Below, one piece after another: positions 32,566 through 52,895 of a stretch of 61,636 nt of DNA. Positions within the stretch are counted from its first letter, which is position 1. The number at the start of each line of letters is the position of its first letter. Both the position numbers and the translations under genes were made by a program. This DNA comes from Streptomyces sp. NRRL F-525 (GTDB lineage: Bacteria > Actinomycetota > Actinomycetes > Streptomycetales > Streptomycetaceae): the NCBI RefSeq assembly GCF_000716605.1, contig NZ_JNXE01000049.1:1-61636 (forward strand), given 5' to 3'. Under the pieces are notes generated by a model. The model saw nothing but the letters and a program-made list of their open reading frames with translations. It was not told where the DNA came from and ran no database searches.

Positions 32566-32592
32566 CAACGGGTGCCGTAGGGGAACGGTTCA
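32566..32592 (-). promoter_or_regulatory. ECF-type promoter P1 (ChW-repeat membrane protein)
   Basis: On the minus strand: TGAACC (32592-32587), 15 nt, CCGTTG (32571-32566). Predicted start near 32559, giving a leader of about 70 nt to ATG 32490. A member of the repeated promoter series of this locus. Confidence 0.75.
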
Positions 32593-32685
32593 ATTCCTCG
32601 GTCACGGGCCCGCATCGATCGAACAGAAATCCACACACTCCGTCAGGTGCCTTGTGGCGCAAGGGTGTTGAGTACAGTCCGGGGC

Positions 32686-35613
32686 GTGAACGGCTACGAA
32701 GACTCCCTCCGTTTCGCCGTGCTGGGACCGGTCCGCGCATGGCGCGGTGAACAGGAACTGGACCTCGGTTCGCCCCAGCAGCGGTCGGTCCTGGCCGCGC
32801 TGCTGCTGCGGCGGGGACACGCTGTCGCGCTCGCCGAACTCCTCGACGCGGTCTGGGGCGAGGAGCAGCCGCAGGCCGCCGTGTCCGTCCTGCGGACCTA
32901 TGTGTCGCGCCTCCGGAAAGTGCTGGAGCCGGGCCGGGAGGCGGCCGACCTCCCCCGGGTGGTCGTGTCGGTCGGCGACGGATATCTGGTCCGCCTGCCG
33001 GCACACGGCCTGGATCTCGCCGTGTTCGAGCGGCGCGTCGCGGAGGCGAAGGAGCTGCGCGCCACCGGGCGGCCGGCCGCCGCCGCGGAGCTGCTGCGCG
33101 TGGCGCTCGACGGGTGGCAAGGGGCGGCACTGGCGGGACTCCCCGGACCGCTGGCCGAGTCCGAGGGCTCCCGGCTGGACGAGGAGCGGCTGACCGCGCT
33201 CGAGACCTGGCTGGACATCGAGGTCGACCGCGGCCGCCACGCCGAAGTGATCGCCGAACTGGTCTCGTTGACCGGCCGGTACCCGCTGCGGGAGCAGCTG
33301 TGCCGGCTGCTCATGCTGGCGCTCTACCGTTCCGGGAGGCAGGCCGAGGCGCTGGCCGCCTACCGCGGTGCGCGCAGCACCCTGGTGGCCGAGCTGGGCA
33401 TCGAACCCGGTACGGCGCTGCGGGACCTGCACGACCGCATACTGGCGGCCGACGCGACCCTGGACCCCGGCCCGCCCGGGCGGCCCCCTCCGCCGCCGGA
33501 GCCGGACTCCCCGGCGCCAACGGCCTCCCCCGCAGCCGTACATGCGGCCCGGCCCGCTCAACTGCCCGCCGATCTGCCGACGTTCGTCGGCCGGTGCGCC
33601 GAACTCGACCGGGCCCGGGCCCTGTTGCCCGAGCGGGGCGGCGCCCCGGCCACCGTGGTGATCACCGCGATCGGCGGGATGGCCGGCATCGGCAAGACCA
33701 CCCTGGCCGTGCACTGGGCGCACGAGGTCGCCGACCGCTTCCCCGACGGACAGCTCTACGTCAATCTGCGCGGCTTCGATCCGACCGGCTCGCTGGTGAC
33801 GCCGGACGAGGCCATCCGCGCCTTCCTCGGCGCGCTCGGCGTCCCCCCGATGCGGATCCCCTCCGGCCTCGACGCCCAGACCGCGCTGTACCGCAGCATG
33901 CTCGCCCAGCGGCGGATGCTGGTCCTCCTGGACAACGCCCGTGACACCGACCAGGCCCGCCCGTTGCTGCCCGGCTCCCCCGGCTCCCTGGTCATCGTCA
34001 CCAGCCGCAACCAGCTCACCGGCCTGGTCGCCGGCGAAGGGGCGCATCCGCTGACCCTGGACCAGCTGACGCCCGCCGAGGCGCACGGCCTGCTGACGAG
34101 CCGGCTCGGCACCGAGCGGCCGGCGGCGGAACCGCGGGCGGCGGACGAGATCATCACGCGGTGCGCCCGGCTGCCGCTGGCCCTGGCCATCGTCGCCGCC
34201 CACGCCGTCGCCCACCCCGGCTTCCCGCTGAGCGCCATCGCCGGGGAACTGCGCGACAGCCACGGCAGCCTCGACGCCTTCGCCTCCGGCGACGACATCA
34301 CCACCGACGTACGGGCCGTCTTCTCCTGGTCGTACAAGGCGGTGTCCGCGCCGGCCGCGCGCGTGTTCCATCTGCTGGGCCTGCACTCCGGACCCGACAT
34401 CTCCGCGCCCGCCGCGGCCGCCCTCGCCGGGCTCCCGGTGCGGGAGACCCGCGGGCTGCTCGTCGAGCTCACCCGCGCCCACCTGCTGACCGAACACTTC
34501 CCGGGCCGCTACGCCCTGCACGACCTGCTGCGCGTCTACGCCGCCGAACGCGTGCGCGCCGAGGAGACACCGCGGGAGCGGGAGCGGGCCGTGGAGCGGC
34601 TGCTCGCCTGGTATCTGCACACCGCCGACGCGGCCTACCCGCACATCACCCCGCAGCGTCGCCGGATCCCGCTCGAACCGCTGCCGGCCCTGTGCCGGCC
34701 CCTGGAGTTCACGACGCACGACCAGGCGCTGGACTGGTGCGAGACCGAACGGGCCAACCTGGTCACCGCCGTGCACCAGGCGGCCGGGTCGGGCAGACCG
34801 GGTGTCGCCTGGCGGCTGCCCGCCGTCCTGTGGGGGTTCTTCTACCTGCGCAGCCACACGCACGACTGGGTGGACACCGCGCAGGTGGGCCTGACCGCCG
34901 CCCGCGCGGACAACGACCGCTGGGGCGAGGCGCAGGGCCTCGCGGACCTGGCCGCCGCGCTGCGCGGCTCGGGCCGGCTCATCGAGGCGGCCGAACAGTT
35001 CCGGCTGGCGATGGTCGCCTACCGGGAGCTCGGGGACGCCGAGGCCAGAGGGTCGGCCGTGACCAATCTGGGCGACACCTATCTGGAGGCCGGCCGGCTC
35101 GGCAAGGCCGTCGAGTACATCCGCAGGGGATTGGCGATCGAGCAGGTCATCGGCAGCGCCTGGGGGGAGGGCATCTCCCTGTGCAACCTGGGCGACGTCT
35201 ACCAGCGGCTCGGCCGGTTCGACGAGGCCGTCGGCTGCCTGGAGCAGGCGCTGGACCTCCTGCGGGCCAACGGCAACCGCTGGGTCGAAGGGGTCACCCT
35301 CGACATCCTGGGCACGGCCCACCGCCGGCTCCAGCGCCACGACGACGCCGTCGAGTACTACCACCAGGCGCTCAGGACCCACCGGGACATCGGCAACCGG
35401 TGGGGGGAGGGCCACACCCTGGGCAACCTCGGTGACGCCCAACTGGCCGCCGGTGAACCGGAGTCCGCCCGTGACAGCTGGCGGCAGGCACTGGCGATCT
35501 TCGTGGAGTTCGACCACCGGGACGCCGCGAAGATCCGCGAGCGCCTCGGCCGGCTGGAGGAGGGTCAGCCGCACACCGACGCGCGACGGGCCGCGCCGGA
35601 GCGGGCCGCCTGA
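32686..35613 (+). CDS. AfsR-like SARP regulator with NB-ARC and TPR domains (left copy)
   Basis: About 975 residues. A SARP OmpR-like DNA-binding domain (about 8-100, LRFAVLGPVRAWRGEQELDL; SVGDGYLVRLP) is followed by a bacterial activation domain (about 105-260), a Pro-rich linker, an NB-ARC/STAND ATPase (about 290-560, P-loop GGMAGIGKTTLAVHWAH, then LVLLDNARD) and C-terminal TPR repeats (about 730-960, repeated 'LGDVYQRLGRFDEAVGCLEQ' type units). AfsR-like proteins activate transcription next to sigma-factor sites when their sensor is engaged. I start at GTG 32686 because it begins the SARP domain. Divergent from the ChW-repeat membrane protein. No TTA codon seen, unlike its right-hand counterpart. 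Ends 24 bp before a shared hairpin. Confidence 0.93.
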   Translation: MNGYEDSLRFAVLGPVRAWRGEQELDLGSPQQRSVLAALLLRRGHAVALAELLDAVWGEEQPQAAVSVLRTYVSRLRKVLEPGREAADLPRVVVSVGDGYLVRLPAHGLDLAVFERRVAEAKELRATGRPAAAAELLRVALDGWQGAALAGLPGPLAESEGSRLDEERLTALETWLDIEVDRGRHAEVIAELVSLTGRYPLREQLCRLLMLALYRSGRQAEALAAYRGARSTLVAELGIEPGTALRDLHDRILAADATLDPGPPGRPPPPPEPDSPAPTASPAAVHAARPAQLPADLPTFVGRCAELDRARALLPERGGAPATVVITAIGGMAGIGKTTLAVHWAHEVADRFPDGQLYVNLRGFDPTGSLVTPDEAIRAFLGALGVPPMRIPSGLDAQTALYRSMLAQRRMLVLLDNARDTDQARPLLPGSPGSLVIVTSRNQLTGLVAGEGAHPLTLDQLTPAEAHGLLTSRLGTERPAAEPRAADEIITRCARLPLALAIVAAHAVAHPGFPLSAIAGELRDSHGSLDAFASGDDITTDVRAVFSWSYKAVSAPAARVFHLLGLHSGPDISAPAAAALAGLPVRETRGLLVELTRAHLLTEHFPGRYALHDLLRVYAAERVRAEETPRERERAVERLLAWYLHTADAAYPHITPQRRRIPLEPLPALCRPLEFTTHDQALDWCETERANLVTAVHQAAGSGRPGVAWRLPAVLWGFFYLRSHTHDWVDTAQVGLTAARADNDRWGEAQGLADLAAALRGSGRLIEAAEQFRLAMVAYRELGDAEARGSAVTNLGDTYLEAGRLGKAVEYIRRGLAIEQVIGSAWGEGISLCNLGDVYQRLGRFDEAVGCLEQALDLLRANGNRWVEGVTLDILGTAHRRLQRHDDAVEYYHQALRTHRDIGNRWGEGHTLGNLGDAQLAAGEPESARDSWRQALAIFVEFDHRDAAKIRERLGRLEEGQPHTDARRAAPERAA

Positions 35614-35636
35614 CCCGCGCCCGCGGCGGGAACACG

Positions 35637-35675
35637 GCCTGGCCGTGCCCCCGGGGGGCGGGTACACGGCCAGGC
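35637..35675. terminator. Hairpin between the left AfsR-like gene and the thaumatin-GH128 gene
   Basis: GCCTGGCCGTG (35637-35647) pairs with CACGGCCAGGC (35665-35675); the 17-nt loop is mostly C then G and can pair internally. It suits both convergent genes. On the minus strand it would also follow at once after the start site of the orphan promoter at 35686-35712. Confidence 0.75.
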
Positions 35676-35721: not shown

Positions 35722-37314
35722 TCAGCTCGCGTCGTGGTAGACACGGCCGCTGGCGTTGGCGGTCGTCCCGTCGTAGAGACCGGTCGGGCTGGTCTGCGTG
35801 GAGAGCGTGAACCACGCGTAGCGCTCCAGGAAGTCCAGGCCGTCCAGCATCCGCGTCGACGACGTGATGAAGGCGGTCTGTTCCTGCTCGCTGGGGTAGC
35901 GGGGGGTGCCCTGGGAGAAGTCGATGAGGCCGTACTCGGTCAGCCAGACCGGCTTGTGGTAGCGGTCCCAGACGGCCTGCAGATAGCCGCGCAGCTGGTC
36001 GGCGGCGCCGGGTCCGAAGTCGGAGCCGTACCAGTGCACGGGGATGAAGTCGACGCGCAGACCGCGGTCGGCGGCGCCCTTCATGAAGCGGTCCAGCCAG
36101 CCGCCGTCGACGTCGGCGCCGGCGGACACCGCGGGCGCGCCCAGCCGCAGCCCGGTGGACTCCAGCCGGGGCCACAGGTCCAGGGCCTGTTCGGGCGTCA
36201 TGTTGGACTGCCCCGCGTTGTCGGGCTCGTTGAAGCCGAGGAGTTCCTTGCTGCCGTTCTGGACGGCCGCGCCGAGTTCGGCGTCGGTGACGGAGCCGGG
36301 GCCCCAGATCATGGGGACGAAGTCGACGCCGTCCGGCTTGGTGACCGCGCCGGTGGAGGACGCCCAGTCGAAGTACCAGGACGCGCCGGAGTCGGCCAGT
36401 GCCTGGGAGGCGCCGTCGACGGGGTTGAGGCTGACGCCCTTGCGGGTCGGGGCGGCCGTGGTGACGGGGTTGGTGACCGGGGCGGGCTGCGTGGTGGCCG
36501 GGTCGGCCGGGGCGGGGCTGCCGGTTCCGAACGCGACGGTCAGGCCGCTGCACTTGGTGCACTGGTACATGACCTTGTTGCCCGGTTCGGCGTCCTGCTT
36601 GGACCAGGCGTACGCGGTCGGGCACTTCTGGTTGATCATGTCGCTGTAGGAGGTCTTCGCGTCCCGGTTCGGGTTGACGCAGACCAGCGACCGGCCGGTG
36701 GCCTGGTCCTTGGTCAGGTCCTCGGCCGGGCAGGCGGACAGCAGATCCTCGGCGCACCCGGCCACCGCGCACTCTCCGCTCGCGGGCGGCGTCACGTCGT
36801 TCGGCGTGATGGTGACGGGCGCGGCGACGGCGTCAACGTAGCTGACGTCGTACCAGGGGGCCAGGGAATCGGCCGGGTCGAAGTTGAACTCGGCGAGCCC
36901 GGTGGGCTGTTGGCCGAGGGTGCAGTGGTCGACGTAGGGTCCGCAGTCCCCGACGGCGCAGTGGAACGTGCTCCCGTCGTCGCCGCCGCACCCCTGACGG
37001 GCGAAGAAGGTGCCGCGCCAGTGCCCGGCGCCCTCGTGCTCCGGGACGGTGACGGTGGCGGACTGGCCCGGGTCCAGCGTCGGCAGCCCGGTGAGCGCGG
37101 CCGAGCCGTCGGCGTTGACCTCGCTGCCGACCCAGATGCGGCTGTCGGTGTTGTTCCGCAGGGTGACTGTGTGGTCGGCGGTGCCTACGTCGGCGGCCGG
37201 GGTTCCGTCGAGGTTCGTGCTGCTGGAGCGGTGCGTCTGGATCGCTATGGCGGTGCCTGACACACCGACGATGACCAGGAGCAGGGCGAGGAGGAGTGAG
37301 GTGCGTCTGCGCAT
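35722..37314 (-). CDS. Membrane-anchored or secreted thaumatin-like domain fused to a GH128 glycoside hydrolase
   Basis: 530 residues. An N-terminal signal/anchor (about 4-25, SLLLALLLVIVGVSGTAIAI) is followed by a thaumatin-like domain (about 45-270: VTLRNNTDSRIWVGS, GTFFARQGCGG, FHCAVGDCGPY, GLAEFNFD, WYDVSYVDA, GRSLVCVNP and many paired Cys). After a Pro/Thr linker comes a GH128/Asl1-type (beta/alpha)8 domain (about 290-530). Probable catalytic Glu residues lie in LLGFNEPDNAGQ and VWLTEYGLIDF. Both domains are known for beta-1,3-glucan binding or cleavage, so the protein may attack fungal or other glucan walls. It has the locus ECF promoter and so is probably co-expressed with the secretion genes. 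Confidence 0.87.
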   Translation of the reverse strand: MRRRTSLLLALLLVIVGVSGTAIAIQTHRSSSTNLDGTPAADVGTADHTVTLRNNTDSRIWVGSEVNADGSAALTGLPTLDPGQSATVTVPEHEGAGHWRGTFFARQGCGGDDGSTFHCAVGDCGPYVDHCTLGQQPTGLAEFNFDPADSLAPWYDVSYVDAVAAPVTITPNDVTPPASGECAVAGCAEDLLSACPAEDLTKDQATGRSLVCVNPNRDAKTSYSDMINQKCPTAYAWSKQDAEPGNKVMYQCTKCSGLTVAFGTGSPAPADPATTQPAPVTNPVTTAAPTRKGVSLNPVDGASQALADSGASWYFDWASSTGAVTKPDGVDFVPMIWGPGSVTDAELGAAVQNGSKELLGFNEPDNAGQSNMTPEQALDLWPRLESTGLRLGAPAVSAGADVDGGWLDRFMKGAADRGLRVDFIPVHWYGSDFGPGAADQLRGYLQAVWDRYHKPVWLTEYGLIDFSQGTPRYPSEQEQTAFITSSTRMLDGLDFLERYAWFTLSTQTSPTGLYDGTTANASGRVYHDAS

Positions 37315-37395: not shown

Positions 37396-37422
37396 CGACG
37401 GATAGGGGTGGGGGACGGTTCA
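37396..37422 (-). promoter_or_regulatory. ECF-type promoter P2 (thaumatin-GH128)
   Basis: Minus strand: TGAACC (37422-37417), 15 nt, CCGTCG (37401-37396); one base differs from the series -10. Predicted start near 37389, leader about 75 nt to ATG 37314. Confidence 0.65.
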
Positions 37423-37438: not shown

Positions 37439-38659
37439 TCACCGTCCGCGGACGGCCTTCGACTGGCCGCCGTTGCTGGTGCTGTTCTGCCGAACTGGCT
37501 TCGGAGAATGCGCGTGTGACGGACCGTCACCAGTGCTCTGGGTCGGGGTCGGTGAAGGGCTGCGGAGAAACGAGCGGTCGTTGGCGATGTCCAGGCCCGT
37601 GGGGCTGAGCAGGGGCGACACCGGATAGGTCGAGTCGCCGGGGGTGCTGAACGCCATGCCGATTTCGTCCGGCAGGGACGACACCGGCGCTCCCAGGGGC
37701 CAGTCCGTGCGGCCGGTGTGATCGACCGACTGGAGCGGGGTCAACTGTGCGGCGCTCGCCCTGAGCGCTCTCTCCGTCTCGGCCACGTTGAAGCCATGGG
37801 CGTCGTGTTCCTCGCCCGGGCTCGGACTCACGGTGGCGTCACTCCGTCGTCGCGCCGCGTCGGCGGAGTGGGCGTCGAGAGGTTCGTTGGCGCGCGGATC
37901 CTGGAAACTTGGCCGCGGCGATGGCTCCGGTGACGGCACCCGTGGCGGAGCCGGTGGTGGCACCTGACGCTCCCAGCGTTGCCGGTTTTCCTCACTCGGT
38001 TGTCGTCTGGGTGTCGCGGCCTGTCGTTCTTTGATGTCCGCGGCCTGGATCGCGTCGACGATCATGGCCTTTTCCTGTGCCTCCAGCCGGAGGGCGTCGT
38101 GCGGCCGTTCCCGAAACGACTCCCGCTCCTGCGCGTTGGCGACGGACTGCCACACCAGGGGCATAGTGGCGCGGGATTCCTGGAACGCCTTCACCAATGT
38201 GGCGTTCTTGGGTTTCCTCAGCTCACTCAGGAGCGTGTCCTCGAAGGCCCAGCGTTCCGTGTCCGAGAGCAGGCCGATCCGCTTCTCGATGCGGTGCATA
38301 CGCTGGAGCAGTGCCTGGGACTCCTCCGTGAGCACCGGCCGCTGTTCGGGCGGCGGCCCCTGCGCCTGCTCGCCCCCGCCTTGCCCCTGTGGGCCCTGGC
38401 CGGCCTCCTGTCCACCGCCGGGTGCCGCGCCTCCACCGCCCGACCCCGACCGTGACCGGCTCCAGATGCGATCCAGGGCGCTCCGCAGGAGGTCCCACAT
38501 CCCCTCGAAGATGTCCGGTTCCGGTGGGCCCGCCGCACGGAACCTCGGGCCGCCGAGCAGCTTGGACTGGGTCTTCAGCAGGTCTCGCGCCAGTCCCGTC
38601 CGGGACCTCGTCCTGGTCAGCCGCTTCCGGCCCTGGGAAGCAGTGTTGTCGAATGCCAC
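37439..38659 (-). CDS. Hypothetical Pro/Arg-rich protein of the secretion locus
   Basis: 406 residues that I do not recognise. There is no signal peptide or membrane segment. The first ~50 residues are basic (GRKRLTRTRSRTGLARDLLK). Residues about 70-105 are Gly/Gln/Pro-rich. A helical, charged core follows (about 110-220, MHRIEKRIGLLSDTERWAFE; FRERPHDALRLEAQEKAMIV), then ~180 residues of disordered Pro/Ser/Arg sequence ending with a basic tail (SKAVRGR). A long disordered, basic C-terminus is a feature of many type IV secretion substrates. It has the locus ECF promoter and stands alone between terminator-like elements. A secreted-effector role is only a suggestion. Confidence 0.75.
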   Translation of the reverse strand: MAFDNTASQGRKRLTRTRSRTGLARDLLKTQSKLLGGPRFRAAGPPEPDIFEGMWDLLRSALDRIWSRSRSGSGGGGAAPGGGQEAGQGPQGQGGGEQAQGPPPEQRPVLTEESQALLQRMHRIEKRIGLLSDTERWAFEDTLLSELRKPKNATLVKAFQESRATMPLVWQSVANAQERESFRERPHDALRLEAQEKAMIVDAIQAADIKERQAATPRRQPSEENRQRWERQVPPPAPPRVPSPEPSPRPSFQDPRANEPLDAHSADAARRRSDATVSPSPGEEHDAHGFNVAETERALRASAAQLTPLQSVDHTGRTDWPLGAPVSSLPDEIGMAFSTPGDSTYPVSPLLSPTGLDIANDRSFLRSPSPTPTQSTGDGPSHAHSPKPVRQNSTSNGGQSKAVRGR

Positions 38660-38698: not shown

Positions 38699-38726
38699 CA
38701 ACGGGCCGTCGGAGGACGGTGGTTCA
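38699..38726 (-). promoter_or_regulatory. ECF-type promoter P3 (406-residue hypothetical)
   Basis: Minus strand: TGAACC (38726-38721), 16 nt, CCGTTG (38704-38699). Predicted start near 38692, leader about 33 nt to 38659. The -35 and spacer lie inside the hairpin at 38701-38760. Confidence 0.75.
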
Positions 38727-39268: not shown

Positions 39269-40468
39269 TCACCTGGCATGCCCCTGCTGTGCGGCGTACC
39301 GCTCGGCGGCCCTCCGCTCCTTCCGCTCGGCATGCGACTCCTGCGTTCGCGCGCCTTCGGGTGGGTTGTACTGCCCCGCCCCCGTCGGGTCGCCGTGCTG
39401 CTGGTACTGGGGGTAGTGCTGGCCCTCGTACGGGTTGCCGCTCTGGTAGTACGGGGCGGCGTAGGCCCCCGCTGTAGTTGTCGTCGCGGGGGTTTCGTAC
39501 GACGACGTGTAAGTCTGCGTCGTAGGCATGGGGTTGTAACGCGCCGTCAGCGAGGGGCTTTCGAACGCCGACGTCAAGCCCATCGTCGTAGTCAGGGCGC
39601 TGTAGTCACCGGCCGACGTCACCGGTATCGAGTACTGACCCGCGACTATCGGGGGTGTGTACTCCGCCTGCGTCGTCGGCGGGAAGTACCCGTCATGGTC
39701 TCCTGTGTACCGGCCCGGTGATTCGTAGCCCGGCGACGTGACGTAGTCCAGGTTCATCCCGGTCTGGCTCGGGTGCCGTTCGTCGAGCTGGGTGCCCAAA
39801 GCGTAGTTGGGCGTTTGGAACGTCGGCGCCGCGTTCGCCTTCTCGTACGCCTTGTAGGCGTTGGCTCCGAGCCCGCCCAGGGTCGCCGTTTGCGACAAAC
39901 CCGTTGACACGTCACCGGTCGTCAATGAGCCGGCCACGCCGAGACTTGCCGAGAGACCGGCGAGAACCTTGCCCGTGTACGGAGGACCGGCTTGGTACCC
40001 GTCCCAGAGGTCCTTCCCCACGCGCGCAGCAGCCCCGCCCCCGGCCACGTACTTCCCCACGGTGGGATCCACCAGCTGTACGAGCCTGCCCCCTTCGGAG
40101 ATCAGTTCAGGGGCGTAGGGCGCGACGACCTTAGCAGCCTGTACGGCATAGCCGAGCCACGTTTTCGACGTTTCGGCTACCCACGCCCCTTGCTTGCTGG
40201 ACCACTTCGCGATGGACCACGTACCGTCCTCATTCGCCTGGGCAGCGAAGGATGACTTCCTCCTTGTTTCCCTACCCTTTGCGTCTGCTGCCTGCTCTTC
40301 AATATCGAAGAGACGGTTGTGCCCCGCCGGCGGGGGGGTACTCGGGCCCTCGCGGAAGCCCCCCATGTCGACTACGGTGGAGCGCCTTCGCGCCCCGGGC
40401 CGTGCGTCCACGCTGAATTTTCGATACCCAGCGGGTTGGGCAGAGCTGGTGGAACTTTCTCCGGCCAT
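39269..40468 (-). CDS. Hypothetical Tyr/Pro/Thr-rich protein of the secretion locus
   Basis: 399 residues without a recognised family. The basic N-terminus (GYRKFSVDARPGARRRSTVV) has no signal peptide. The middle (about 70-215) holds moderately hydrophobic, Gly/Ala-rich stretches (AAKVVAPYAPELISEGG; LAGLSASLGVAGSLTTGDVS) that could insert into a membrane after export. Residues about 230-370 are disordered with repeated Tyr/Pro/Thr/Gln (YETPATTTT, YYQSGNPYEGQHYPQYQQHG). The end is basic and charged (ESHAERKERRAAERYAAQQG). AAGGAG precedes ATG 40468 ideally. It has its own ECF promoter and terminator. The layout would suit an exported effector or surface protein, but that is inference. Confidence 0.75.
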   Translation of the reverse strand: MAGESSTSSAQPAGYRKFSVDARPGARRRSTVVDMGGFREGPSTPPPAGHNRLFDIEEQAADAKGRETRRKSSFAAQANEDGTWSIAKWSSKQGAWVAETSKTWLGYAVQAAKVVAPYAPELISEGGRLVQLVDPTVGKYVAGGGAAARVGKDLWDGYQAGPPYTGKVLAGLSASLGVAGSLTTGDVSTGLSQTATLGGLGANAYKAYEKANAAPTFQTPNYALGTQLDERHPSQTGMNLDYVTSPGYESPGRYTGDHDGYFPPTTQAEYTPPIVAGQYSIPVTSAGDYSALTTTMGLTSAFESPSLTARYNPMPTTQTYTSSYETPATTTTAGAYAAPYYQSGNPYEGQHYPQYQQHGDPTGAGQYNPPEGARTQESHAERKERRAAERYAAQQGHAR

Positions 40469-45809: not shown

Positions 45810-47572
45810 GCCGTCCACCCCCCGGCCTCTCCGGCGAGGGCGCCCGGGTCGCCGGGGAAACCGAGGGGTCCCTCCTGAGCGACCCGTGCGACCTCTTCGG
45901 CGGCGCGGGCCGCGGCCTGCTCGATGGCCGCCTCGTTGGTCGTCCAGCGGGTGTTGGTGTTGTGCAGGTCGCGCTCGGCGTCGGTGATGGCGACCTTGAT
46001 CGGGATGCCGGGGCGGCCGCCGACCTTGATGAGGAAGCGGCCGCGGCCCGGCGGCTCCTCGTCCTCGCCGCGGACGCCCCAGCCGGGCGGCGAGGACCAG
46101 GACGAGACGAGTTCGATCTCGCGGCGGGAGAGTCCGACGACCTTGCCGAGATCCTCCATCTCGGTCTTCGGCAGTCCGGCGCAGACGACCATGCCGGCCC
46201 GCTCGACGAAGCCGCGCGCCTTGGCGCGGTCGGCGTCGGTGCCGAGGGCCTCGGCGTCCTTGAGGGTGTGGGTGATCTTGGCGTCGCCGAGACCGAGGGA
46301 GCGGTTGAGGCGGGTGAGCGCGTCGATGCGGTCGACGATGCCGGAGGCCGCGCGCAGCGGGCGCCACAGCTCGTCGAGGACGGTGAAGAACCAGCGCCGG
46401 GGCGCGAGTCCGGCGTCCGCGAGGGCGTGCGAGGCGGCGACCGTGCCGAGCCCGTCGGACCAGGCGGCGAGCATCGCGGCGGCGGTGAGCTGGGTGTCGG
46501 CCTCGCCGATGCCGGAGATGTCGATGCACACGGCGGGCGCGTTCGCGTCGATGCGGGTGGACGTCTCGGAGGCGAAGGTGTCGCCGAGCGGACCGTCGAG
46601 GATGCCGAGCAGGGAGCGGTGCAGCGGGTCCACGGCGTCCCGGTAGCGGGTGTCGTCGCCGCGGTCGAGGGTGACCGCGCGGACCCGGTCGGGGCCCTCG
46701 GTGAGGACCCGCAGCACGTCGGGCAGCAGCACGCTGCGGCCGGGAGGGGTGCGTTCGCGCAGGTGGTGCAGGACGGCGGAGAGCACGGACTGCTCGTGGT
46801 CGTCCATGGGCCGGCCGCGCACGATGGTGATGAGCGCGGCGACCATGTTCAGCACCCGGCCGTGGGCCTCGGCCTTCAGGACCTCGCCGGCCTCGCCGCC
46901 GACCTTCGCGGCGGCCTCGCCCATGGCGCCCGGGTCGAGGACGTTGATGCCGCCCCGGCCGCGGCCGATGGAGATGACCTGGCCGCCGAGCGCGCGGACG
47001 GTGTCGGCGTAGTCGGGCTTGAGGTCGCCGAGGACCAGCGGGACGACACCGGTCGCGGCGAGCCCGATCAGCATCCGGTTGATGAGCGTCGACTTGCCCA
47101 GGCCCGGCATGCCGAGCATGAACAGGGAGGGGTTGGAGATGTAGCGGGCCCGGGTGAACCAGTTCAGCGGGTCGCCGCAGACCGTGGCACCGGTGAACAG
47201 GTGCTGGCCGAGCGGCACTCCGGTCATGGGCGAGCCCGAACCGGCGGCGAACGGCCACATGCCGCAGGCCTGCACGGTGGTGGCGCGCCACATGGTGGGC
47301 GGGTCCATATATCCGACGCGGCCCCCGCCGGCGCCCTCCCAGCCGCGGGCCGGGATGTACAGCTCGCGGGGCTTGGCCGGGGCCTTGCCCTTGCCGGCGC
47401 GCCTGGCGTCGGACTTCGCCCGGGCCTTCGCGGACTTCGTCGCGGCGGCCTCGGCGCCGGATCCGTCCAGGCCGACCAGGCCCGGCCCGCCCGCGGCCAG
47501 GTCCCGGAGCGCCCGTTCCTCGGCCAGCAGGTCGGCGCGCTCGGCCAGCTTCTCCTCGCTACGACGGCTCAC
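45806..47572 (-). CDS. VirB4-like type IV secretion ATPase
   Basis: 588 residues. A charged N-terminus with Ala/Lys-rich stretch (about 40-70) is followed by 'SNPSLFMLGMPGLGKSTLIN' (Walker A near 157), VVPLVLGDLKPDYADTVRAL, VCIDISGIGEADTQL, and Walker B FTVLDELWRPLRA near 397, then ITHTLKDAEALG and AGMVVCAGLPKTEME. This is the C-terminal motor half of VirB4; the N-terminal half is probably the separate SCO6880-family protein encoded just upstream. GGAGG with 4-nt spacing precedes GTG 47572, which overlaps the upstream stop (GTGA). It energises assembly or substrate transfer. Confidence 0.92.
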   Translation of the reverse strand: MSRRSEEKLAERADLLAEERALRDLAAGGPGLVGLDGSGAEAAATKSAKARAKSDARRAGKGKAPAKPRELYIPARGWEGAGGGRVGYMDPPTMWRATTVQACGMWPFAAGSGSPMTGVPLGQHLFTGATVCGDPLNWFTRARYISNPSLFMLGMPGLGKSTLINRMLIGLAATGVVPLVLGDLKPDYADTVRALGGQVISIGRGRGGINVLDPGAMGEAAAKVGGEAGEVLKAEAHGRVLNMVAALITIVRGRPMDDHEQSVLSAVLHHLRERTPPGRSVLLPDVLRVLTEGPDRVRAVTLDRGDDTRYRDAVDPLHRSLLGILDGPLGDTFASETSTRIDANAPAVCIDISGIGEADTQLTAAAMLAAWSDGLGTVAASHALADAGLAPRRWFFTVLDELWRPLRAASGIVDRIDALTRLNRSLGLGDAKITHTLKDAEALGTDADRAKARGFVERAGMVVCAGLPKTEMEDLGKVVGLSRREIELVSSWSSPPGWGVRGEDEEPPGRGRFLIKVGGRPGIPIKVAITDAERDLHNTNTRWTTNEAAIEQAAARAAEEVARVAQEGPLGFPGDPGALAGEAGGWTA

Positions 47573-49062
47573 AGCGCCTCCTGCAGTTCGTGCGGGACGA
47601 GGGTCTGTTCCCACGGAAGGATCCCGGCGGGCAGGGTGCAGCTGAACGCGGCCGCCTGCATCCGGTCGGCGGGGCGCATGAGCACCCGGGACGCCGCGGT
47701 CAGGTTGCGTACGGTGACGCTGGCGTCGGCGAGTTCCGCCAGGGTGTCGACGGTGACCGTCAGCATCAGCGAGAACTCCACGAGCCCGGCGCCGGACGCC
47801 TCCTCGGCGGCGGTCTGTTCGGCCGCCCGCACCTCTGAGGCGGCGCGCGCCTGGACCATGCCCTTGCCGGACGTGGCCATGAACTGGGCGCTGCGCCGGT
47901 CGGCCTCGACGATGCGGGCCGAGGTGGCGGGGTCGATGGCCCGGTAGACCAGGGCGACCCGCTTGCGCCGGGTGCCGGGGGCGGCCTCCAGCATGCCGCG
48001 CAGCACCGAGGAGCGGACGGTGCCGCGGGGTGCCAGGGTGAGCATCCAGGTGCGGGAGACACCCGAGTCGTGCTGGTAGGCGTTGACCGTCTCGACGGCG
48101 GCGGCGGGACCGGCGTCGTCCCACTCCAGGCCCGTTCCGCCTTCCAGGGCACGGGCGTTGAGGACGTCGGCGGCGACGGCGGGGTCGTAGGCGACCCGGA
48201 CTACCTCGGCGATCCGCTCGGCCGACAGCGGGTAGGCGGCACCGCCGCCGGCCGCGACGAGCCCGCTGAGCAGGCCGGGGATGCGGATGGCCAGTTCGGT
48301 CATCACGTCCTCCTTCCTGCGCTTCTGGCCGGCCGGGTTGCCGTAGGTGAGGGTGACGTAGGTGTGCATCTCGGAGGAGGCGCTCGGGTAGCGCTCGACG
48401 ACCTCCTCCATCACGGCGCGGGCGGCGGCCGGCGCGTTCGGGTGGATGCGGGGCAGCACCTCGTGGGCGAGCCGGGTGCCGGGGTCGGGGGCGGTCTCCA
48501 CGATCACGGTGGCGCCCTTGAGACCGGGTTCGTGGGAGAGCCGGGCCAGCCACTCGCCCCACAGCGCGACCCAGACGTCGACCTGGTCCGGGTCGATGAG
48601 CGAACCGCCGTCGGGGTCGCAGCCCAGGACGATCGTGTACAGGTCGCGCTGCGGGTGGTGCAGGATCCCGAAGGGGCGGTCGTAGGCGTCGCGGCCCTCG
48701 CTCGCGGTGACCTTGTTGAGCAGGCCCGGCGGGCGGAACCGGCCGCCGGGGCGCGCGGACAGCGGGCCCGAGACGTAGAGGTGCGAGCCGGCGGCCTTCC
48801 TGCGCCACCAGCCGACGCGCAGGGCGAAGAGCTGGTAGACGTTGCGGCCGTCCTGGGTGCGGATGGTCAGCGGGATGAGGAACAGGACGACCGGCACGAA
48901 CACGACGAGCGCCGCGTACAGCGAGATCAGCGAGGCGAGCAGGGTGGCGACGAGGCCGCCGAAGATCACGAAGGTGCCGACGAGTCCGAGCGGTCCGAGC
49001 CCCGCGCGCCTCGGCCTGCGCCAGTTCCCGTAGGTCGGGTGGGAGACGGCTTCCGTGGACAT
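47569..49062 (-). CDS. SCO6880-family membrane protein (VirB3/VirB4-N-like)
   Basis: 497 residues. Two close N-terminal membrane helices (about 25-65, LVGTFVIFGGLVATLLASLI; LVVFVPVVLFLIPLTI) in a PrgI/VirB3-like position are followed by a large cytoplasmic domain with a helical end (SAQFMATSGKGMVQARAASE). It matches the actinobacterial family named after SCO6880, found beside VirB4- and VirD4-like ATPases in conjugation-type loci. I infer that it supplies the VirB3 and VirB4 N-terminal functions. AAGGA lies before ATG 49062; it is followed by the coupled ATPase gene. Confidence 0.87.
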   Translation of the reverse strand: MSTEAVSHPTYGNWRRPRRAGLGPLGLVGTFVIFGGLVATLLASLISLYAALVVFVPVVLFLIPLTIRTQDGRNVYQLFALRVGWWRRKAAGSHLYVSGPLSARPGGRFRPPGLLNKVTASEGRDAYDRPFGILHHPQRDLYTIVLGCDPDGGSLIDPDQVDVWVALWGEWLARLSHEPGLKGATVIVETAPDPGTRLAHEVLPRIHPNAPAAARAVMEEVVERYPSASSEMHTYVTLTYGNPAGQKRRKEDVMTELAIRIPGLLSGLVAAGGGAAYPLSAERIAEVVRVAYDPAVAADVLNARALEGGTGLEWDDAGPAAAVETVNAYQHDSGVSRTWMLTLAPRGTVRSSVLRGMLEAAPGTRRKRVALVYRAIDPATSARIVEADRRSAQFMATSGKGMVQARAASEVRAAEQTAAEEASGAGLVEFSLMLTVTVDTLAELADASVTVRNLTAASRVLMRPADRMQAAAFSCTLPAGILPWEQTLVPHELQEAL

Positions 49063-49228: not shown

Positions 49229-50473
49229 TCACTTGTTGTTGCCGAGTTCTCCGTCGGCCCCCTCGACGGCGCCGGAGACGGTCGAGCTCGCGACCTGGGT
49301 CGCGGCCACGGCCGCGAGGATCGCCATGCCGGCGGGGCCGCCCATCGCCGCCGCGGCTTCCTTGCCCGCACCGCCCGCGGCCTTGCCGGCACCGCCACCG
49401 CCACCGCTCTTGCCCGCACCGCTCGGACCGCCCGAGCCGGACGCGCCGTCGGAACCGCTGCCGCCGGACGCGCCGTCCGAGCCGCTCCCGCCGGACGCGC
49501 CGCCGGTGCCGCTGGCTCCGCTCGGGCCCTTCTGCGCGCCACCGCCACCGCCGCCGCCGGACGCGCCGCTCATGGCGCCGACCTGCACGGCACCGCTGGC
49601 CAGCTGGCTGCCCGCCTGGCCCATGGAGGCCATCGGGTTGCCGGTGCCCATGGCAGCGGCGGCGGGTACGACGAGCTTCAGCAGCGCGGGGAGCGCGATG
49701 GCGGACAGCAGCATCACGCCGATACCGGCGATACGGGTGTTGACGTTGGCGCCCGTCGGGCTGTTCTGGCCTTCGGTGATCATCGCCATACCGGCGTTCA
49801 GCACGAGGGCGACCGCGGGTTTGTACAACAGCCAGGAGATCATCCAGCCGATGTGCTTGCGCCACCAGCCGGCGCCCCAGTCCGTCATCGAGGCCGCGGC
49901 GGCCATCGGGAGGGTGCCGAGCATGATCATCATGACGCCGAGCCGGATGTACATCAGGATCGTGTGCAGGATGCCCGCGAGCAGCAGCAGGAAGGCGAGG
50001 ATCAGCAGCAGGAAGGACTCGATGCCGGTGCTGTCGCCGCAGGCGCCGATGTGGTCCAGCGCCTTCTGCACCGAGTCGTCGAAGAGGTAGGTGGAGTAGT
50101 TGTCCGCGACCCTGGCGGCGGCCACGCAGATGGTGGTGGCGGCGCCCGAGACGAGGACGACCCGCATGATGCCCTTCAGGGCGGTGACACCCGCGGTGCC
50201 CCTGCGCTCGATCGCCATCTTGCCGGCCGCGAACAGCAGGGAACCGACGGCCAGATAGACCACGATCCACGATGTCTTGTTGCTGAGGTCGTGCGAGGTG
50301 GTCGTGTCGTCCAGGGTCGGGACACTCTCGGCCAGCCCCGCGAACACGGCGATCGCGGCGGCGAGGATCGTCTTCGCGATCAGACTGATGACCGTCCCGA
50401 CGGGGTCGCCGAGAAAGCTGAAGAACCCGGTGATCGCGTCCGCGAGCGGATTCCCGGTACTGCAGGCCGCCAT
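49229..50473 (-). CDS. TrbL/VirB6-like polytopic channel protein
   Basis: 414 residues. Six or so membrane helices in the first 290 residues (LIAKTILAAAIAVFAGLAES; FLLLILAFLLLLAGILHTIL; LGVMMIMLGTLPMAAAA; IAGIGVMLLSAIALPALLKL) and a cytoplasmic or outside loop with Cys residues precede a low-complexity Gly/Ser/Ala tail (about 310-395). The tail contains tandem 9-residue units GGSGSDGAS. This layout is that of TrbL/VirB6 channel subunits. The ATG at 50473 lies immediately after the upstream gene's stop; GGGGGGCC is the ribosome site. Confidence 0.88.
   Translation of the reverse strand: MAACSTGNPLADAITGFFSFLGDPVGTVISLIAKTILAAAIAVFAGLAESVPTLDDTTTSHDLSNKTSWIVVYLAVGSLLFAAGKMAIERRGTAGVTALKGIMRVVLVSGAATTICVAAARVADNYSTYLFDDSVQKALDHIGACGDSTGIESFLLLILAFLLLLAGILHTILMYIRLGVMMIMLGTLPMAAAASMTDWGAGWWRKHIGWMISWLLYKPAVALVLNAGMAMITEGQNSPTGANVNTRIAGIGVMLLSAIALPALLKLVVPAAAAMGTGNPMASMGQAGSQLASGAVQVGAMSGASGGGGGGGAQKGPSGASGTGGASGGSGSDGASGGSGSDGASGSGGPSGAGKSGGGGGAGKAAGGAGKEAAAAMGGPAGMAILAAVAATQVASSTVSGAVEGADGELGNNK
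49438..49517. repeat. 27-bp tandem repeat in the TrbL-like gene
   Basis: About three units of 27 bp (49438-49464, 49465-49491 and a partial third), each coding for GGSGSDGAS on the minus strand. Such repeats can change copy number and hence the length of the protein's flexible tail. Confidence 0.75.
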
Positions 50474-50474
50474 G

Positions 50475-51230
50475 TCAGGCCCCCCAGAGTGTGTAGCCGA
50501 CGGCGCTCTGCTCGGAGGCCAGCTGCGAGTACAGTCCGCCGCTTTCGTCGGGCTGGATCTTCCAGTCGCCACCGCTCCAGCGCACGTAGACGGTGGTCCT
50601 GGCATAGCCCTGGTCGTTCTTGATCAACAGCCCGACGGTCGCCGCCTTTCCGGTGTACGAGGTCACCTGGAACCCGGCGTACGACGAGGTGGTCGGGGCG
50701 GTGTTCGAGCCGTCCGTGTCCGGCACGGCGGTGCGCTGGAACACGAACAGCTCGCGTTCCTGCCCGGCGACCACCTGCTGGTCGGTGACGGTGCGCCACT
50801 GGGACCCGCTCATCTGGGTGGGGATGTCGGTGGCGGCCAGTACGGCACCCATGGGGGTGTGCGCGAAGCACCACCACACGGCGCCCTGGATCTTCGTCGG
50901 CCCCGCCGAGGCGGAGACCGGCACCCGCCCGACGTCGAGCGTGTGCCACGTGATGTCCTTCGGCACGGACGTGGGGATCGCGTCGCCCGCGCTGTCGTCG
51001 GTACGGCAGCCGCCGGGACGGCTGTCCTTCGTGGTGACGGTGCCGGACAGCGGGCCCTTGGACGCCGGAGCCTCAGCACCGTCACCGGAGCCCGATCCGG
51101 ACGTCAGCGTGGCGGTCACGCCCATGACGACGACCAGCGCGAGGAACCCCGCCGACGCCTGCCAGCTGCGCTGTTTCCAGTACGGCCCGGACTCCTCGGA
51201 CCGCTGTTCTCCGCGCTTGAGTATGCCCAC
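50475..51230 (-). CDS. Single-pass membrane protein of the type IV secretion operon (VirB8-like by layout)
   Basis: 251 residues: a short basic cytoplasmic part (GILKRGEQRSEESGPYWKQR), one membrane helix (about 25-45, SAGFLALVVVMGVTATLT), then a ~200-residue outside domain with a few Cys (GCRTDD, WWCFAH) and a mixed alpha/beta character ending 'VRWSGGDWKIQPDESG'. This size and topology, between the channel and the pilin-like genes, is that of VirB8/TcpC-type scaffold proteins with NTF2-like folds; sequence similarity is not obvious to me. GTG 51230 follows GAGGG. Confidence 0.78.
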   Translation of the reverse strand: MGILKRGEQRSEESGPYWKQRSWQASAGFLALVVVMGVTATLTSGSGSGDGAEAPASKGPLSGTVTTKDSRPGGCRTDDSAGDAIPTSVPKDITWHTLDVGRVPVSASAGPTKIQGAVWWCFAHTPMGAVLAATDIPTQMSGSQWRTVTDQQVVAGQERELFVFQRTAVPDTDGSNTAPTTSSYAGFQVTSYTGKAATVGLLIKNDQGYARTTVYVRWSGGDWKIQPDESGGLYSQLASEQSAVGYTLWGA

Positions 51231-51243
51231 TGCCCCGCGCCCT

Positions 51244-51531
51244 CTAGTTGAAGACGAACTGGACGAGCGGGCCGGCCGTGGCCACCAGGACACAGCCGCC
51301 GAGCACCATGCCGAGGCGGCTCATGTGCTCCGAACTCTCGCCCCGCTTCACGGAGATGGCCATCATCGCGCCGGTCACCAGCACGCCGCAGACACCGGCG
51401 GCGGTGCCGGCCCAGGCGAGGATGCCGAGGACGAGGTCGACCTTGGTGGTCAGTTCGGACGGGGCGTTGCTCGTCGGCTGTGGAACGGTGGCGGCGAGGA
51501 TGCTGGCGGTTTCGTGAAGCGGTGCGGACAT
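51244..51531 (-). CDS. Small two-helix membrane protein, VirB2/TrbC pilin-like (copy A)
   Basis: 95 residues. After ~28 polar residues come two membrane helices (about 32-60, LVLGILAWAGTAAGVCGVLV; about 72-92, LGMVLGGCVLVATAGPLVQF) joined by a basic loop SVKRGESSEHMS. This is the size and topology of VirB2/TrbC-type pilins, and of the paralogue encoded next. GGAGAG precedes ATG 51531. It probably forms a surface filament or channel ring. Confidence 0.8.
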   Translation of the reverse strand: MSAPLHETASILAATVPQPTSNAPSELTTKVDLVLGILAWAGTAAGVCGVLVTGAMMAISVKRGESSEHMSRLGMVLGGCVLVATAGPLVQFVFN

Positions 51532-51611: not shown

Positions 51612-51896
51612 TCAGGGACCTTGCAGGGTCAGGTCGCCGAGGAACTTGACGATCGGGTAGGCCGAGGTGGCGACCACGCAGGCGAGGACGACGAAGAAGA
51701 CCCCGCGGAAGTGCTCACCGCCCTCGCCCGGGTCGCCGCGGCGCAGCTGGAGCGCCATCTGCATGCCGACGATGATCAGTCCGGCGACACCGCAGGCCGA
51801 GGCGCACCAGGAGAGGGTGTCGATGATCAGGTGGCCGTCGCCGCCCGGGTCGAACCCGTCGGCCAAGTACCGCGTGGCGGTGAGGAGTTGACTCAC
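51612..51896 (-). CDS. Small two-helix membrane protein, VirB2/TrbC pilin-like (copy B)
   Basis: 94 residues with the same plan as the neighbouring gene: helices LIIDTLSWCASACGVAGLII and GVFFVVLACVVATSAYPIVK joined by LQLRRGDPGEGGEHF. The pair are diverged paralogues (shared 'L.W...A.GV.G..., ...(K/R)RG..., ...V.L..CV.AT...P.V.F'). GTG 51896 overlaps the stop of the upstream gene (GTGA), so translation is coupled. Two different pilin-like subunits may form a mixed ring or filament. Confidence 0.8.
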   Translation of the reverse strand: MSQLLTATRYLADGFDPGGDGHLIIDTLSWCASACGVAGLIIVGMQMALQLRRGDPGEGGEHFRGVFFVVLACVVATSAYPIVKFLGDLTLQGP

Positions 51897-52747
51897 GACA
51901 TGGCTCCCTCGCCGTAGACGTCGCTGCCCACCAGCCGGGAGAGCGTGACCAGTTGCCGGGGGACGTACTTCATCGGGCCGTCCGTGCGCCACGCCGGGAT
52001 CCACGGCACGCGGTGCACGCGGGCGACGGAGCGCAGTACCCGGATGCGGCGCAGCAGGCTGAGCGGCAGCCGGCCGGGGGCGTCGGCGACGAGCACCACG
52101 GCCAGCAGTTCGAGCCCCTGCGGGGCGTCGCCGTCCTCGAACGCGCCGAGCGCCTGGGACACGGACCGCAGTCCGCTCGCGCTGGTCCGGCCGACCAGGA
52201 CGACCCGGTACGGCTCGCCCCGCGCGGGCTCCGGCCAGCGGGCGCCCATGTCCACGCCGCCGAGGGCCTCGGCCAGCGAGGTCGCGCCGGAGCCGCCGTG
52301 CGCCTTGACCCACCCGACGTCCTCACGCGGCCTGCCACGCCCCACCGTCCTGGGCCGCCTCGGCTGGCCCAGGCCCGAACTGGCCTTGCGCGCGGGCGCG
52401 TTGGGCCGGGGTGCGGCCTGCCGCGGGGCGGGCGCCACGGTCCGGGGGGCGGTGGTCTGCCGTACGGCGGGGGCCGCGGGCCGCGGAGCCACGGGCCGCG
52501 GGGCGGGCTGTACGACGGTCTGCGCCCCCTGCCGTACGGGCGCGGACGGCAGCCCGCCGCCGAAGCCCTGGTGCGGGGAGTACGCCGTCTGCCCGACGGG
52601 GGCCTGGTATCCGGCGGGGGCGGGGGGTCCGACGGGGGCGGCCGTGCCGCCGTCCGTCGCCGGGCGGGCCGACTGCTCGGACTGTGTGGACCTGGGTCCC
52701 CGTACCCATGACCGCGGGCCCGGCTGTGGTGCCGAAGGAGTGCCCAT
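51893..52747 (-). CDS. First gene of the secretion operon: Pro-rich protein with P-loop-like domain (DUF6668-like)
   Basis: 284 residues (from ATG 52747; ATG 52798 would add 17). The first ~140 residues are Pro/Ala/Arg-rich and disordered. The folded part starts with 'VGWVKAHGGSGATSLAEALG', where GGSGATS looks like a deviant P-loop of ParA/MinD-type ATPases, and continues YRVVLVGRTSASGLRSVSQAL, LLAVVLVADAPGRLPLSLLR. Such a protein may place or orient the machine. I think it belongs to DUF6668 but cannot verify. Arg AGG and Gln CAA codons in the 17-codon extension argue for the shorter form. Promoter P8 drives it. Confidence 0.75.
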   Translation of the reverse strand: MGTPSAPQPGPRSWVRGPRSTQSEQSARPATDGGTAAPVGPPAPAGYQAPVGQTAYSPHQGFGGGLPSAPVRQGAQTVVQPAPRPVAPRPAAPAVRQTTAPRTVAPAPRQAAPRPNAPARKASSGLGQPRRPRTVGRGRPREDVGWVKAHGGSGATSLAEALGGVDMGARWPEPARGEPYRVVLVGRTSASGLRSVSQALGAFEDGDAPQGLELLAVVLVADAPGRLPLSLLRRIRVLRSVARVHRVPWIPAWRTDGPMKYVPRQLVTLSRLVGSDVYGEGAMS

Positions 52748-52814
52748 GACGTTCTTCCCGCCCCCCTCTTGCCTCGTGCTTCCGCTGTTCTGGCTCATCC
52801 GGTTTCCACTGGTT

Positions 52815-52841
52815 TGAACTTTTTCGCCACGGGGCCCGTTT
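52815..52841 (+). promoter_or_regulatory. ECF-type promoter P9 (VirB1-like gene)
   Basis: Plus strand: TGAACT (52815-52820), 15 nt, CCGTTT (52836-52841); each hexamer differs by one base from the series. Predicted start near 52848, leader about 77 nt to ATG 52925. It faces promoter P8. Confidence 0.6.
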
Positions 52842-52867
52842 CGGTCTACCGGGCCCGTCGGACAGCA

Positions 52868-52895
52868 CAACGGGCCATGTGGCCACAGCGGTTCA
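52868..52895 (-). promoter_or_regulatory. ECF-type promoter P8 (main secretion operon)
   Basis: Minus strand: TGAACC (52895-52890), 16 nt, CCGTTG (52873-52868). Predicted start near 52861. It drives the leftward operon of eight genes. P8 and P9 point toward each other, so their transcripts would overlap by roughly a dozen bases at the 5' ends. Confidence 0.78.

What the first reader, a model, noticed from the sequence alone, without database searches (positions are those of the whole stretch)
32566..52895. One ECF-type promoter, TGAACC-15/16-CCGTTG, in front of nine transcription units
Reading the gaps between genes shows the same pair of words each time, oriented with the gene: minus strand at 32566-32592, 37396-37422, 38699-38726, 40516-40542, 41253-41280, 42359-42386 and 52868-52895; plus strand at 42404-42430 and 52815-52841. 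The -35 is TGAACC in eight (TGAACT once). The -10 is CCGTTG in six, with one-base variants CCGTCG, ACGTTG and CCGTTT. Spacing is 15 or 16 nt, and predicted leaders are about 30-115 nt. GAAC/CGTT is the known shape of ECF-sigma promoters. The genes served are the secretion operon, a VirB1-like enzyme, NlpC/P60, DUF4913, thaumatin-GH128, the ChW membrane protein and two unknowns. This defines a single-sigma regulon that includes proteins not otherwise linkable to secretion.
Basis: partly seen in the sequence, partly recalled or inferred. Interest (0 to 1): 0.88.

Follow-up and report, generated by a model that had tools for sequence, protein, structure and literature searches.

The report
One promoter series runs a secretion locus
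Ten copies of one two-part promoter sit in a 20-kb Streptomyces locus that encodes a type IV secretion-like machine, cell-wall enzymes, its own sigma factor and fast-changing proteins that look like its cargo; the same series recurs at the matching locus of related species, so the promoter probably marks one dedicated switch and a list of candidate exported proteins.

Summary
A tenth, exact site at 35686-35712(-) was missed. The stricter form TGAACC-N15/16-NCGTTGT occurs 7 times in the 10.94-Mb genome, all 7 inside 17 kb of this window. In 40 related loci a loose form is found 211 times against 1 for its reversed control. The likely reader is the ECF sigma factor at 54768 (SIG1), a SigL-like paralogue without a neighbouring zinc-finger anti-sigma. 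The 11 of 199 genus genomes with a close SIG1 orthologue carry 4-11 strict sites (median 7); 183 others have median 1. The other ECF gene (58501) is not a conserved driver. The regulon is the locus, not the genome. It includes variable, non-secretory proteins with a basic, disordered C-terminus (29 of 34 at +3 or more in the last 20 residues), a plausible secretion tail. The machine and sigma promoters face each other at a fixed distance. No transcript was measured; the sigma-promoter link and secretion are inferred.

The parts
32566..32592 (-). promoter TGAACC-15-CCGTTG before the ChW membrane protein gene
   Evidence: leader 75 nt
37396..37422 (-). promoter TGAACC-15-CCGTCG before the thaumatin-GH128 gene
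   Evidence: leader 81 nt
38699..38726 (-). promoter TGAACC-16-CCGTTG before unknown A
   Evidence: leader 39 nt
40516..40542 (-). promoter TGAACC-15-CCGTTG before unknown B
   Evidence: leader 47 nt
41253..41280 (-). promoter TGAACC-16-CCGTTG before DUF4913
   Evidence: leader 51 nt
42359..42386 (-). promoter TGAACC-16-CCGTTG before NlpC/P60
   Evidence: leader 46 nt; motif before NlpC in 27 of 28 related loci, the other cut by an end
42404..42430 (+). promoter TGAACC-15-ACGTTG before the 130-aa membrane protein and DUF418 genes, back to back with the NlpC promoter
   Evidence: leader 37 nt; 28 of 28 related loci
52815..52841 (+). promoter TGAACT-15-CCGTTT before the SLT - TPR protein - sigma genes; faces 52868-52895(-), 26 nt between the -10 words
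   Evidence: leader 83 nt
52868..52895 (-). promoter TGAACC-16-CCGTTG before the secretion operon
   Evidence: leader 69 nt to an ATG at 52798
54768..55352 (+). SIG1, SigL-like ECF sigma factor, the likely reader of the series
   Evidence: Pfam sigma regions 2 and 4; best NCBIfam PRK09645 198.2 bits, cut-off 202; best PDB match Mtb SigL
43995..45818 (-). VirD4/TraG-type coupling protein
   Evidence: PF02534, PF12696 above cut-off
45806..47572 (-). VirB4-like ATPase
   Evidence: no Pfam match; NCBIfam VirB4-type models, far below cut-off
47569..49062 (-). SCO6880-family protein
   Evidence: NCBIfam SCO6880_fam 506.8 bits, cut-off 60
49229..50473 (-). VirB6-like membrane protein, weak SCO6881-family match
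   Evidence: 25.1 bits, cut-off 325
50475..51230 (-). protein with one hydrophobic segment, VirB8-like by position and layout only
   Evidence: no Pfam or NCBIfam match; inference
51244..51531 (-). TrbC/VirB2-like pilin
   Evidence: PF04956 20.7 bits, below cut-off 27.9
51612..51896 (-). second small membrane protein
   Evidence: sequence; no Pfam match; inference
51893..52798 (-). first gene of the secretion operon, DUF6668-like
   Evidence: PF20373 26.2 bits, cut-off 27; start set
52925..53755 (+). SLT lytic transglycosylase, VirB1-like
   Evidence: PF01464 18.2 bits, below cut-off 21.3
53767..54612 (+). TPR protein with an N-terminal domain shared with the ChW membrane protein
30910..32490 (-). 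ChW membrane protein
   Evidence: PF07538; membrane segment by eye
35722..37314 (-). thaumatin-GH128 protein with an N-terminal hydrophobic segment
   Evidence: PF00314, PF11790; segment by eye
37439..38659 (-). unknown A, candidate substrate, basic C-terminus (+5 in last 20)
39269..40468 (-). unknown B, candidate substrate (+3 in last 20), no homologue but itself found
40692..41201 (-). DUF4913 protein, possible substrate partner (inference)
   Evidence: PF16259; model
41278..42312 (-). NlpC/P60 peptidase, probably secreted (signal-like N-terminus by eye)
   Evidence: PF00877
32686..35613 (+). SARP-type BTAD/NB-ARC/TPR regulator; no site before it in related loci (0 of 27, 10 of them cut by an end)

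Best explanation
The ten sites are promoters of one ECF holoenzyme whose sigma subunit is SIG1 (54768-55352). Inferred course: a signal that raises active SIG1 starts transcription at the facing pair 52815(+)/52868(-), making more SIG1 through the SLT - TPR protein - SIG1 genes and making the secretion machine. The same holoenzyme fires the promoters of the cell-wall enzymes (NlpC/P60, thaumatin-GH128), membrane proteins, DUF4913 and the variable proteins A and B, so machine, wall-opening enzymes and candidate cargo appear together. SIG1 is a SigL-like paralogue with no zinc-finger anti-sigma beside it, so its control must be different, perhaps through the TPR protein or the flanking SARP/STAND regulators (inference). 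Shown: sites, specificity, conservation, co-occurrence with SIG1. Inferred: that SIG1 reads them, autoregulation, and that the variable proteins are translocated substrates.
For: Strict motif 7 of 7 genome-wide inside this locus, control 0. Loose motif 211 against 1 control in 805 kb of 40 loci; before the 130-aa membrane protein gene 28 of 28, NlpC 27 of 28, SLT 26 of 30, unknown A 9 of 11, thaumatin-GH128 12 of 16. Around the machine/sigma gap, 37 stretches examined: machine-side site in 36, sigma-side site in 34, both in 33; the -10 words are 25-26 nt apart in 27 of these 33, namely all with a SIG1 of 66% or more and three whose SIG1 lies outside the stretch, 36-37 nt (one DNA turn more) in 5 distant ones, and otherwise placed in one. 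In orthologous promoters the T after CCGTTG, which was not in the search pattern, is invariant at the NlpC, 130-aa, machine, thaumatin and antisense sites, not at ChW and SLT, while spacers average 0.6-1.1 bits. The 11 genomes of 199 with a 70% or better SIG1 have 4-11 strict sites, median 7; Mann-Whitney P = 4e-9 against the 188 others (counts copied by hand). Four distant secretion loci with no SIG1 found in the fetched stretch have 0, 0, 0 and 1 sites (L131-L134), and a Micromonospora locus with a 40% SIG1 has 0 (L129). SIG1's closest solved relative is M. tuberculosis SigL (E 3e-33), for which CG followed by T at the -10 is reported (PMC6372665, passages), as in CGT here.
Against: No transcript 5' ends or mutants. 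Species are related, so the P value overstates independence. SIG1 and the machine travel together, so co-occurrence alone cannot say which gene of the locus is responsible. The M. tuberculosis SigL -10 consensus has G at its most specific position (-11), where this series has T or C. Not every unit keeps a site: DUF4913 7 of 28, ChW 13 of 33 (that row includes hits to the domain shared with the TPR protein). Machine operon: 15 of 33, where the distance window from a BLAST start was too short; 36 of 37. A wide form of the motif is also over-represented in the whole genome (148 against 32 for the reversed control), which is unexplained.
Confidence: 0.8

Rival explanations
1. Another ECF factor reads the series, above all the SigL-like gene on contig C43 (54% identical to SIG1, with a zf-HC2 protein next to it), and SIG1 has a different target set.
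For: The paralogue is close to SIG1 and has the usual sigma/anti-sigma layout.
Against: 150 of 199 genus genomes match SIG1 at E 1e-40, most listed matches at 49-57% identity (list cut), so such paralogues are common, yet the 183 genomes outside my two SIG1 groups have a median of 1 strict site.
Confidence: 0.12
2. The two-part word is the site of a DNA-binding activator or repressor, for example one of the SARP regulators, and the promoters are of ordinary type.
For: Two SARP-type regulators lie in or beside the regulon.
Against: Fixed order and orientation towards the gene, 15/16-nt spacers of free sequence, GAAC/CGTT halves and 37-83 nt to the start codon are promoter features. No comparison with SARP sites was run.
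Confidence: 0.05
3. SIG1 drives the series (as in the best explanation), but the regulon makes an envelope or developmental complex like Cmd of S. coelicolor and exports nothing; the basic-tailed proteins are surface- or nucleic-acid-associated.
For: cmdABCDEF, a related cluster, affects sporulation and chromosome segregation, and null mutants of SCO6878 or SCO6881 showed neither defective sporulation nor pigment over-production on the medium tried (PMC2782261, abstract and Discussion).
Against: A full VirD4/TraG coupling protein is present, and candidate cargo turns over quickly while the machine is conserved.
Confidence: 0.4

Closest known systems
M. tuberculosis SigL regulon (SigL-RslA)
   Same: SIG1's closest solved relative; ECF type; CGT at the start of the -10 region. 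A TGAACC -35 for SigL is recalled, not seen in a call
   Different: -10 continues TGT instead of the published G-N-C/A-A-G pattern; no zf-HC2 protein found beside SIG1; targets are a secretion locus
cmdABCDEF (SCO4126-4131) and SCO6871-6884 clusters of S. coelicolor
   Same: SCO6880-family protein, VirB4-like ATPase and membrane proteins in one operon
   Different: the window's locus has a dedicated ECF gene, wall enzymes and variable proteins under one promoter word; no sigma factor is named in the two parts of that paper that I read
Bacteria-killing VirB/D4 type IV systems (such as those of Xanthomonas and Stenotrophomonas)
   Same: chromosomal machine with coupling protein and several variable candidate cargo genes (the likeness is inferred)
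   Different: Gram-positive host, so no outer-membrane parts expected; their known signal domain was not sought; comparison rests on search listings and recall
Brucella ECF effect on its T4SS (PMC8315932)
   Same: an ECF factor affects T4SS expression (title and start of abstract only)
   Different: there part of a stress response; here the strict promoter word is confined to the secretion locus

Membership tests
ECF sigma promoter | GAAC-type -35 and CGT-type -10 with about 15-17 nt between | tested here: met
ECF sigma promoter | transcript starts a few nt after the -10 | not testable with these tools
   no transcript data
ECF sigma factor (SIG1) | sigma regions 2 and 4 only, about 200 aa | tested here: met
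   PF04542, PF04545 above cut-off; 194 aa
SigL (PRK09645; the name SigL for this model is recalled) | curated family score of 202 bits | tested here: not met
   198.2 bits; so SigL-like, not filed as SigL
SigL | adjacent zinc-finger anti-sigma | tested here: not met
   none among the 30 window proteins scanned, which include all neighbours from 24269 to 61392 that I called except one at 25292-26266; present next to the C43 paralogue
SigL | -10 with G at -11 | tested here: not met
   T at that place in nine of the ten window sites, C in the CCGTCG site
Type IV secretion system | VirD4/TraG coupling protein | tested here: met
   PF02534, PF12696
Type IV secretion system | VirB4 ATPase | tested here: inconclusive
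   VirB4-type NCBIfam models match below cut-off
Type IV secretion system | VirB2, VirB6, VirB1 parts | tested here: inconclusive
   TrbC 20.7 bits, SLT 18.2 bits, SCO6881 25.1 bits, all below cut-off
Conjugation element | relaxase gene | tested here: inconclusive
   none among 30 window proteins scanned, all right of 24269; the left part was not scanned
SCO6880/Cmd-type cluster | SCO6880-family protein | tested here: met
   506.8 bits, cut-off 60
T4SS substrate | C-terminal, basic, unstructured translocation signal shown to be needed (hallmark recalled) | tested here: inconclusive
   composition fits, but not against the small in-locus control; function not testable here

The most novel reading that the evidence does not exclude
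A SigL-type ECF factor that parted from its anti-sigma has become the private switch of a chromosomal, protein-translocating type IV system in Streptomyces. Its promoter word acts as an address label: a gene that lands behind it joins the regulon, so a cassette of fast-changing effectors with basic C-terminal tails, partnered by DUF4913, is renewed beside a conserved machine. Two facing promoters of the same type, held at 25-26 nt or one DNA turn more, make polymerase choose between more sigma factor and more machine, and an antisense promoter at the end of the SARP regulator gene closes a feedback loop.
Probability: 0.35. Interest if true: 0.87.

Novelty: new variant of a known kind. Interest (0 to 1): 0.74.

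Why it matters
Chromosomal type IV-like clusters of Streptomyces are known, in what I read, mainly from knock-out phenotypes; what they carry and when they are made is open. A promoter word confined to such a locus gives an inducer gene to test (SIG1) and a short list of candidate substrates that sequence similarity alone could not link to secretion; 28 of the 40 named loci fetched carry the conserved NlpC/130-aa promoter pair region.

Tried and rejected
Chance: rejected by shuffles, reversed control and genome count. Genome-wide regulon: not supported; outside the locus the exact words are mostly inside genes (9 of 14), and the form TGAACN-N15/16-NCGTYGTG finds 21 matches, 7 here and 14 scattered, control 3. 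A wider form gives 148 against 32; its list was cut before this contig, I did not place those matches, and the excess is unexplained. ECF gene 58501 as driver: rejected (17 of 199 genomes match at E 1e-40, of the 11 SIG1 genomes only this one).

Fewer in-frame antisense stops in site-bearing loci (0.82 against 2.56 per 1000 codons) is also seen for VirB4 (0.80 against 2.00), so it is no evidence of coding.

Weak sides of the basic-tail test. With soluble, C-terminally disordered proteins of the same loci as control (n = 13, mean +3.15) the difference is not significant (P 0.15); marks 6 of the 13 as lying in the variable region of a secretion locus (one of these is a DUF4913 protein), so that control is mixed, and I made another from 20 unrelated stretches of the same genome. 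The 34 proteins (46 before a 50% identity filter) fall in 16 families by BLASTP, so they are not 34 independent cases. Genes at stretch ends, proteins under 120 aa and five distant loci were dropped before the count. Five of 34 are below +3 (two at -1 and -4); one of the 34 is a membrane protein by hydropathy and one a member of the small Pro-rich family. All genes come from a simple coding-score caller of mine, not from annotation.
Full report
What was checked. The nine sites were read directly and are as described. With start codons set on the sequence, the leaders after the -10 word are 75, 81, 39, 47, 51, 46, 37, 69 and 83 nt for ChW, thaumatin-GH128, unknown A, unknown B, DUF4913, NlpC/P60, the 130-aa membrane protein, the secretion operon and SLT. 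The secretion operon's first gene starts at 52798, earlier than the ORF used at first.

Specificity. The window shows 7 exact matches where 0.01 are expected. In the genome of 10.94 Mb the exact pair has 21 matches, reversed control 1. Of the 14 outside the window 9 lie inside genes by a simple coding-score caller, 5 do not, and only 2 of these have a same-strand start within 300 nt. Adding the T that follows the -10 word and freeing its first base leaves 7 matches in the whole genome, all 7 here, control 0. A wide form (TGAACY, VCGTYK) gives 148 against 32; its list was cut before this contig and that excess is not explained.

Conservation. A protein search for the coupling protein in named genomes gave 40 loci. 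After turning them to the window's orientation, the loose motif occurs 211 times against 1 for its reverse in 805 kb; upstream of the 130-aa gene in 28 of 28 loci that have it, NlpC 27 of 28 (the other is cut by a contig end), SLT 26 of 30, unknown A 9 of 11, thaumatin-GH128 12 of 16, secretion operon 15 of 33 (distance window too short, see below), ChW 13 of 33, DUF4913 7 of 28, SARP regulator 0 of 27 with 10 cut by an end. Column counts at orthologous sites are conditioned on the search words, except for the base after CCGTTG, which is T without exception at five classes of site and mostly C at ChW and C or G at SLT; spacers vary. Twenty-two stretches from 13 genomes, the window included, were laid out gene by gene (the output was cut in the middle of one).

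Pair geometry. The secretion-operon and sigma-operon promoters face each other with 26 nt between the -10 words in the window. In 37 stretches where an SLT gene lies on the plus strand (one further locus of other orientation was dropped), the machine-side site is found in 36, the sigma-side site in 34 and both in 33. The gap is 25-26 nt in 27 of the 33, 36-37 nt in five from the clade with 52-55% SIG1, and the two are otherwise arranged in one. The two gap classes differ by about one turn of DNA. Both polymerases would use the same DNA, so the two starts should exclude each other at any moment; this and any role of helical phase are inferences. The NlpC and 130-aa promoters stand back to back.

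Which sigma. The window has two ECF genes. In 199 genomes of the genus, 11 hold a SIG1 relative of 70% identity or more; their strict-motif counts are 7, 6, 8, 8, 6, 5, 8, 11, 6, 10 and 4 (G000, G189, G130, G095, G197, G011, G131, G160, G176, G106, G014). Five genomes with 54-57% relatives that I set apart (G122, G032, G105, G088, G138; a cut of my own, relatives at 53% stayed in the rest) have 7, 7, 10, 2 and 3. The other 183 have median 1, maximum 4, and 5 of them reach 4. In one search's list the sites sit together: 5 of 5 in 14 kb (G011), 6 of 6 in 15 kb (G197), 6 of 8, 6 of 8 and 7 of 10 on one contig (G095, G131, G106); that list is not complete for all genomes. The second ECF gene has relatives in 17 of 199 genomes and in none of the other 10 SIG1 genomes at E 1e-40. 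The C43 paralogue is 54% identical and has a zf-HC2 protein beside it; no such protein was found beside SIG1. SIG1 is third in line behind 52815(+), so positive feedback is likely.

What the regulon holds. Conserved members are the machine, SLT, NlpC/P60 and small membrane proteins, and in many loci thaumatin-GH128 and DUF4913. Between NlpC and the SARP gene lies a region whose genes differ from species to species and often start behind the motif (12 loci laid out). Thirty-four non-redundant proteins of this class (46 found) in 16 families were compared with 291 proteins from 20 unrelated stretches of this genome. The mean charge of the last 20 residues is +3.88 against 0.00; against soluble proteins with a disordered end (n = 24) it is +3.88 against -0.29, P = 8e-9; 29 of 34 reach +3; all 34 have K or R in the last four residues; one has a TM-like segment. 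A small control from the same loci did not separate (P 0.15; see Tried and rejected). A basic, unstructured C-terminus is the recalled hallmark of VirB/D4 substrates; that comparison comes from no call. Unknown A has 7 relatives other than itself among the candidates scored, none with a functional name; unknown B has none.

Relation to the literature. I read the abstract and Discussion of PMC2782261 (cmdABCDEF) and passages of PMC6372665 (SigL structure), PMC9205884 (S. coelicolor sigma regulons), PMC4821874 and PMC12857230 (T4SS review). In that review the Streptomyces passages found concern TraB-type DNA transfer. Searches for an ECF factor tied to a type IV system in Streptomyces listed none that I recognised as such (only the top was shown), and DUF4913 is in no held paper. 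Most subscription papers are missing from the library.

Verdict. I rate it a new variant of a known kind: an ECF regulon confined to one secretion locus, with an address-label promoter that points to candidate substrates.

Noticed in passing
35686-35712(-) and 14 of 22 non-redundant loci, the window included: Conserved site of the series pointing antisense into the 3' end of the SARP/NB-ARC gene; in 12 of the 14 an RBS-ATG overlaps the SARP stop codon, but not in the window.
   Followed up: partly
52815-52895: Two promoters of the same type face each other, 25-26 nt between -10 words in 27 loci and 36-37 nt in five distant ones; possible mutual exclusion between sigma operon and machine operon.
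   Followed up: partly
53767-54612 and 30910-32490: The TPR protein next to SIG1 and the ChW membrane protein share an N-terminal domain of about 75 residues (47% identical); both ends of the regulon carry it.
   Followed up: partly
L089/L090, L087/L088, L085 (stretches of G138, G105, G032): A second, diverged secretion operon (VirB4 54-56% identical where it was reached) lies next to the first and has a site of the series before its own SLT-like gene.
   Followed up: no
38763-39029 and six related loci: Small proteins of about 65-130 aa rich in Pro and Leu lie between the variable genes; in the six loci they start behind the motif, in the window not; function unknown.
   Followed up: no
G189 joined locus 36975 and G095 joined locus 36656: A site of the series lies antisense inside the second SARP gene at a similar place in two species; the window has only a degenerate form at 56198-56224.
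   Followed up: no
58501-59067: Second ECF gene, matched in 17 of 199 genus genomes at E 1e-40 and unrelated to the series; next to an Ala-rich 204-aa protein.
   Followed up: partly
39269-40468: Unknown B has no relative but itself among the 7994 candidates scored from 5.8 billion proteins.
   Followed up: yes
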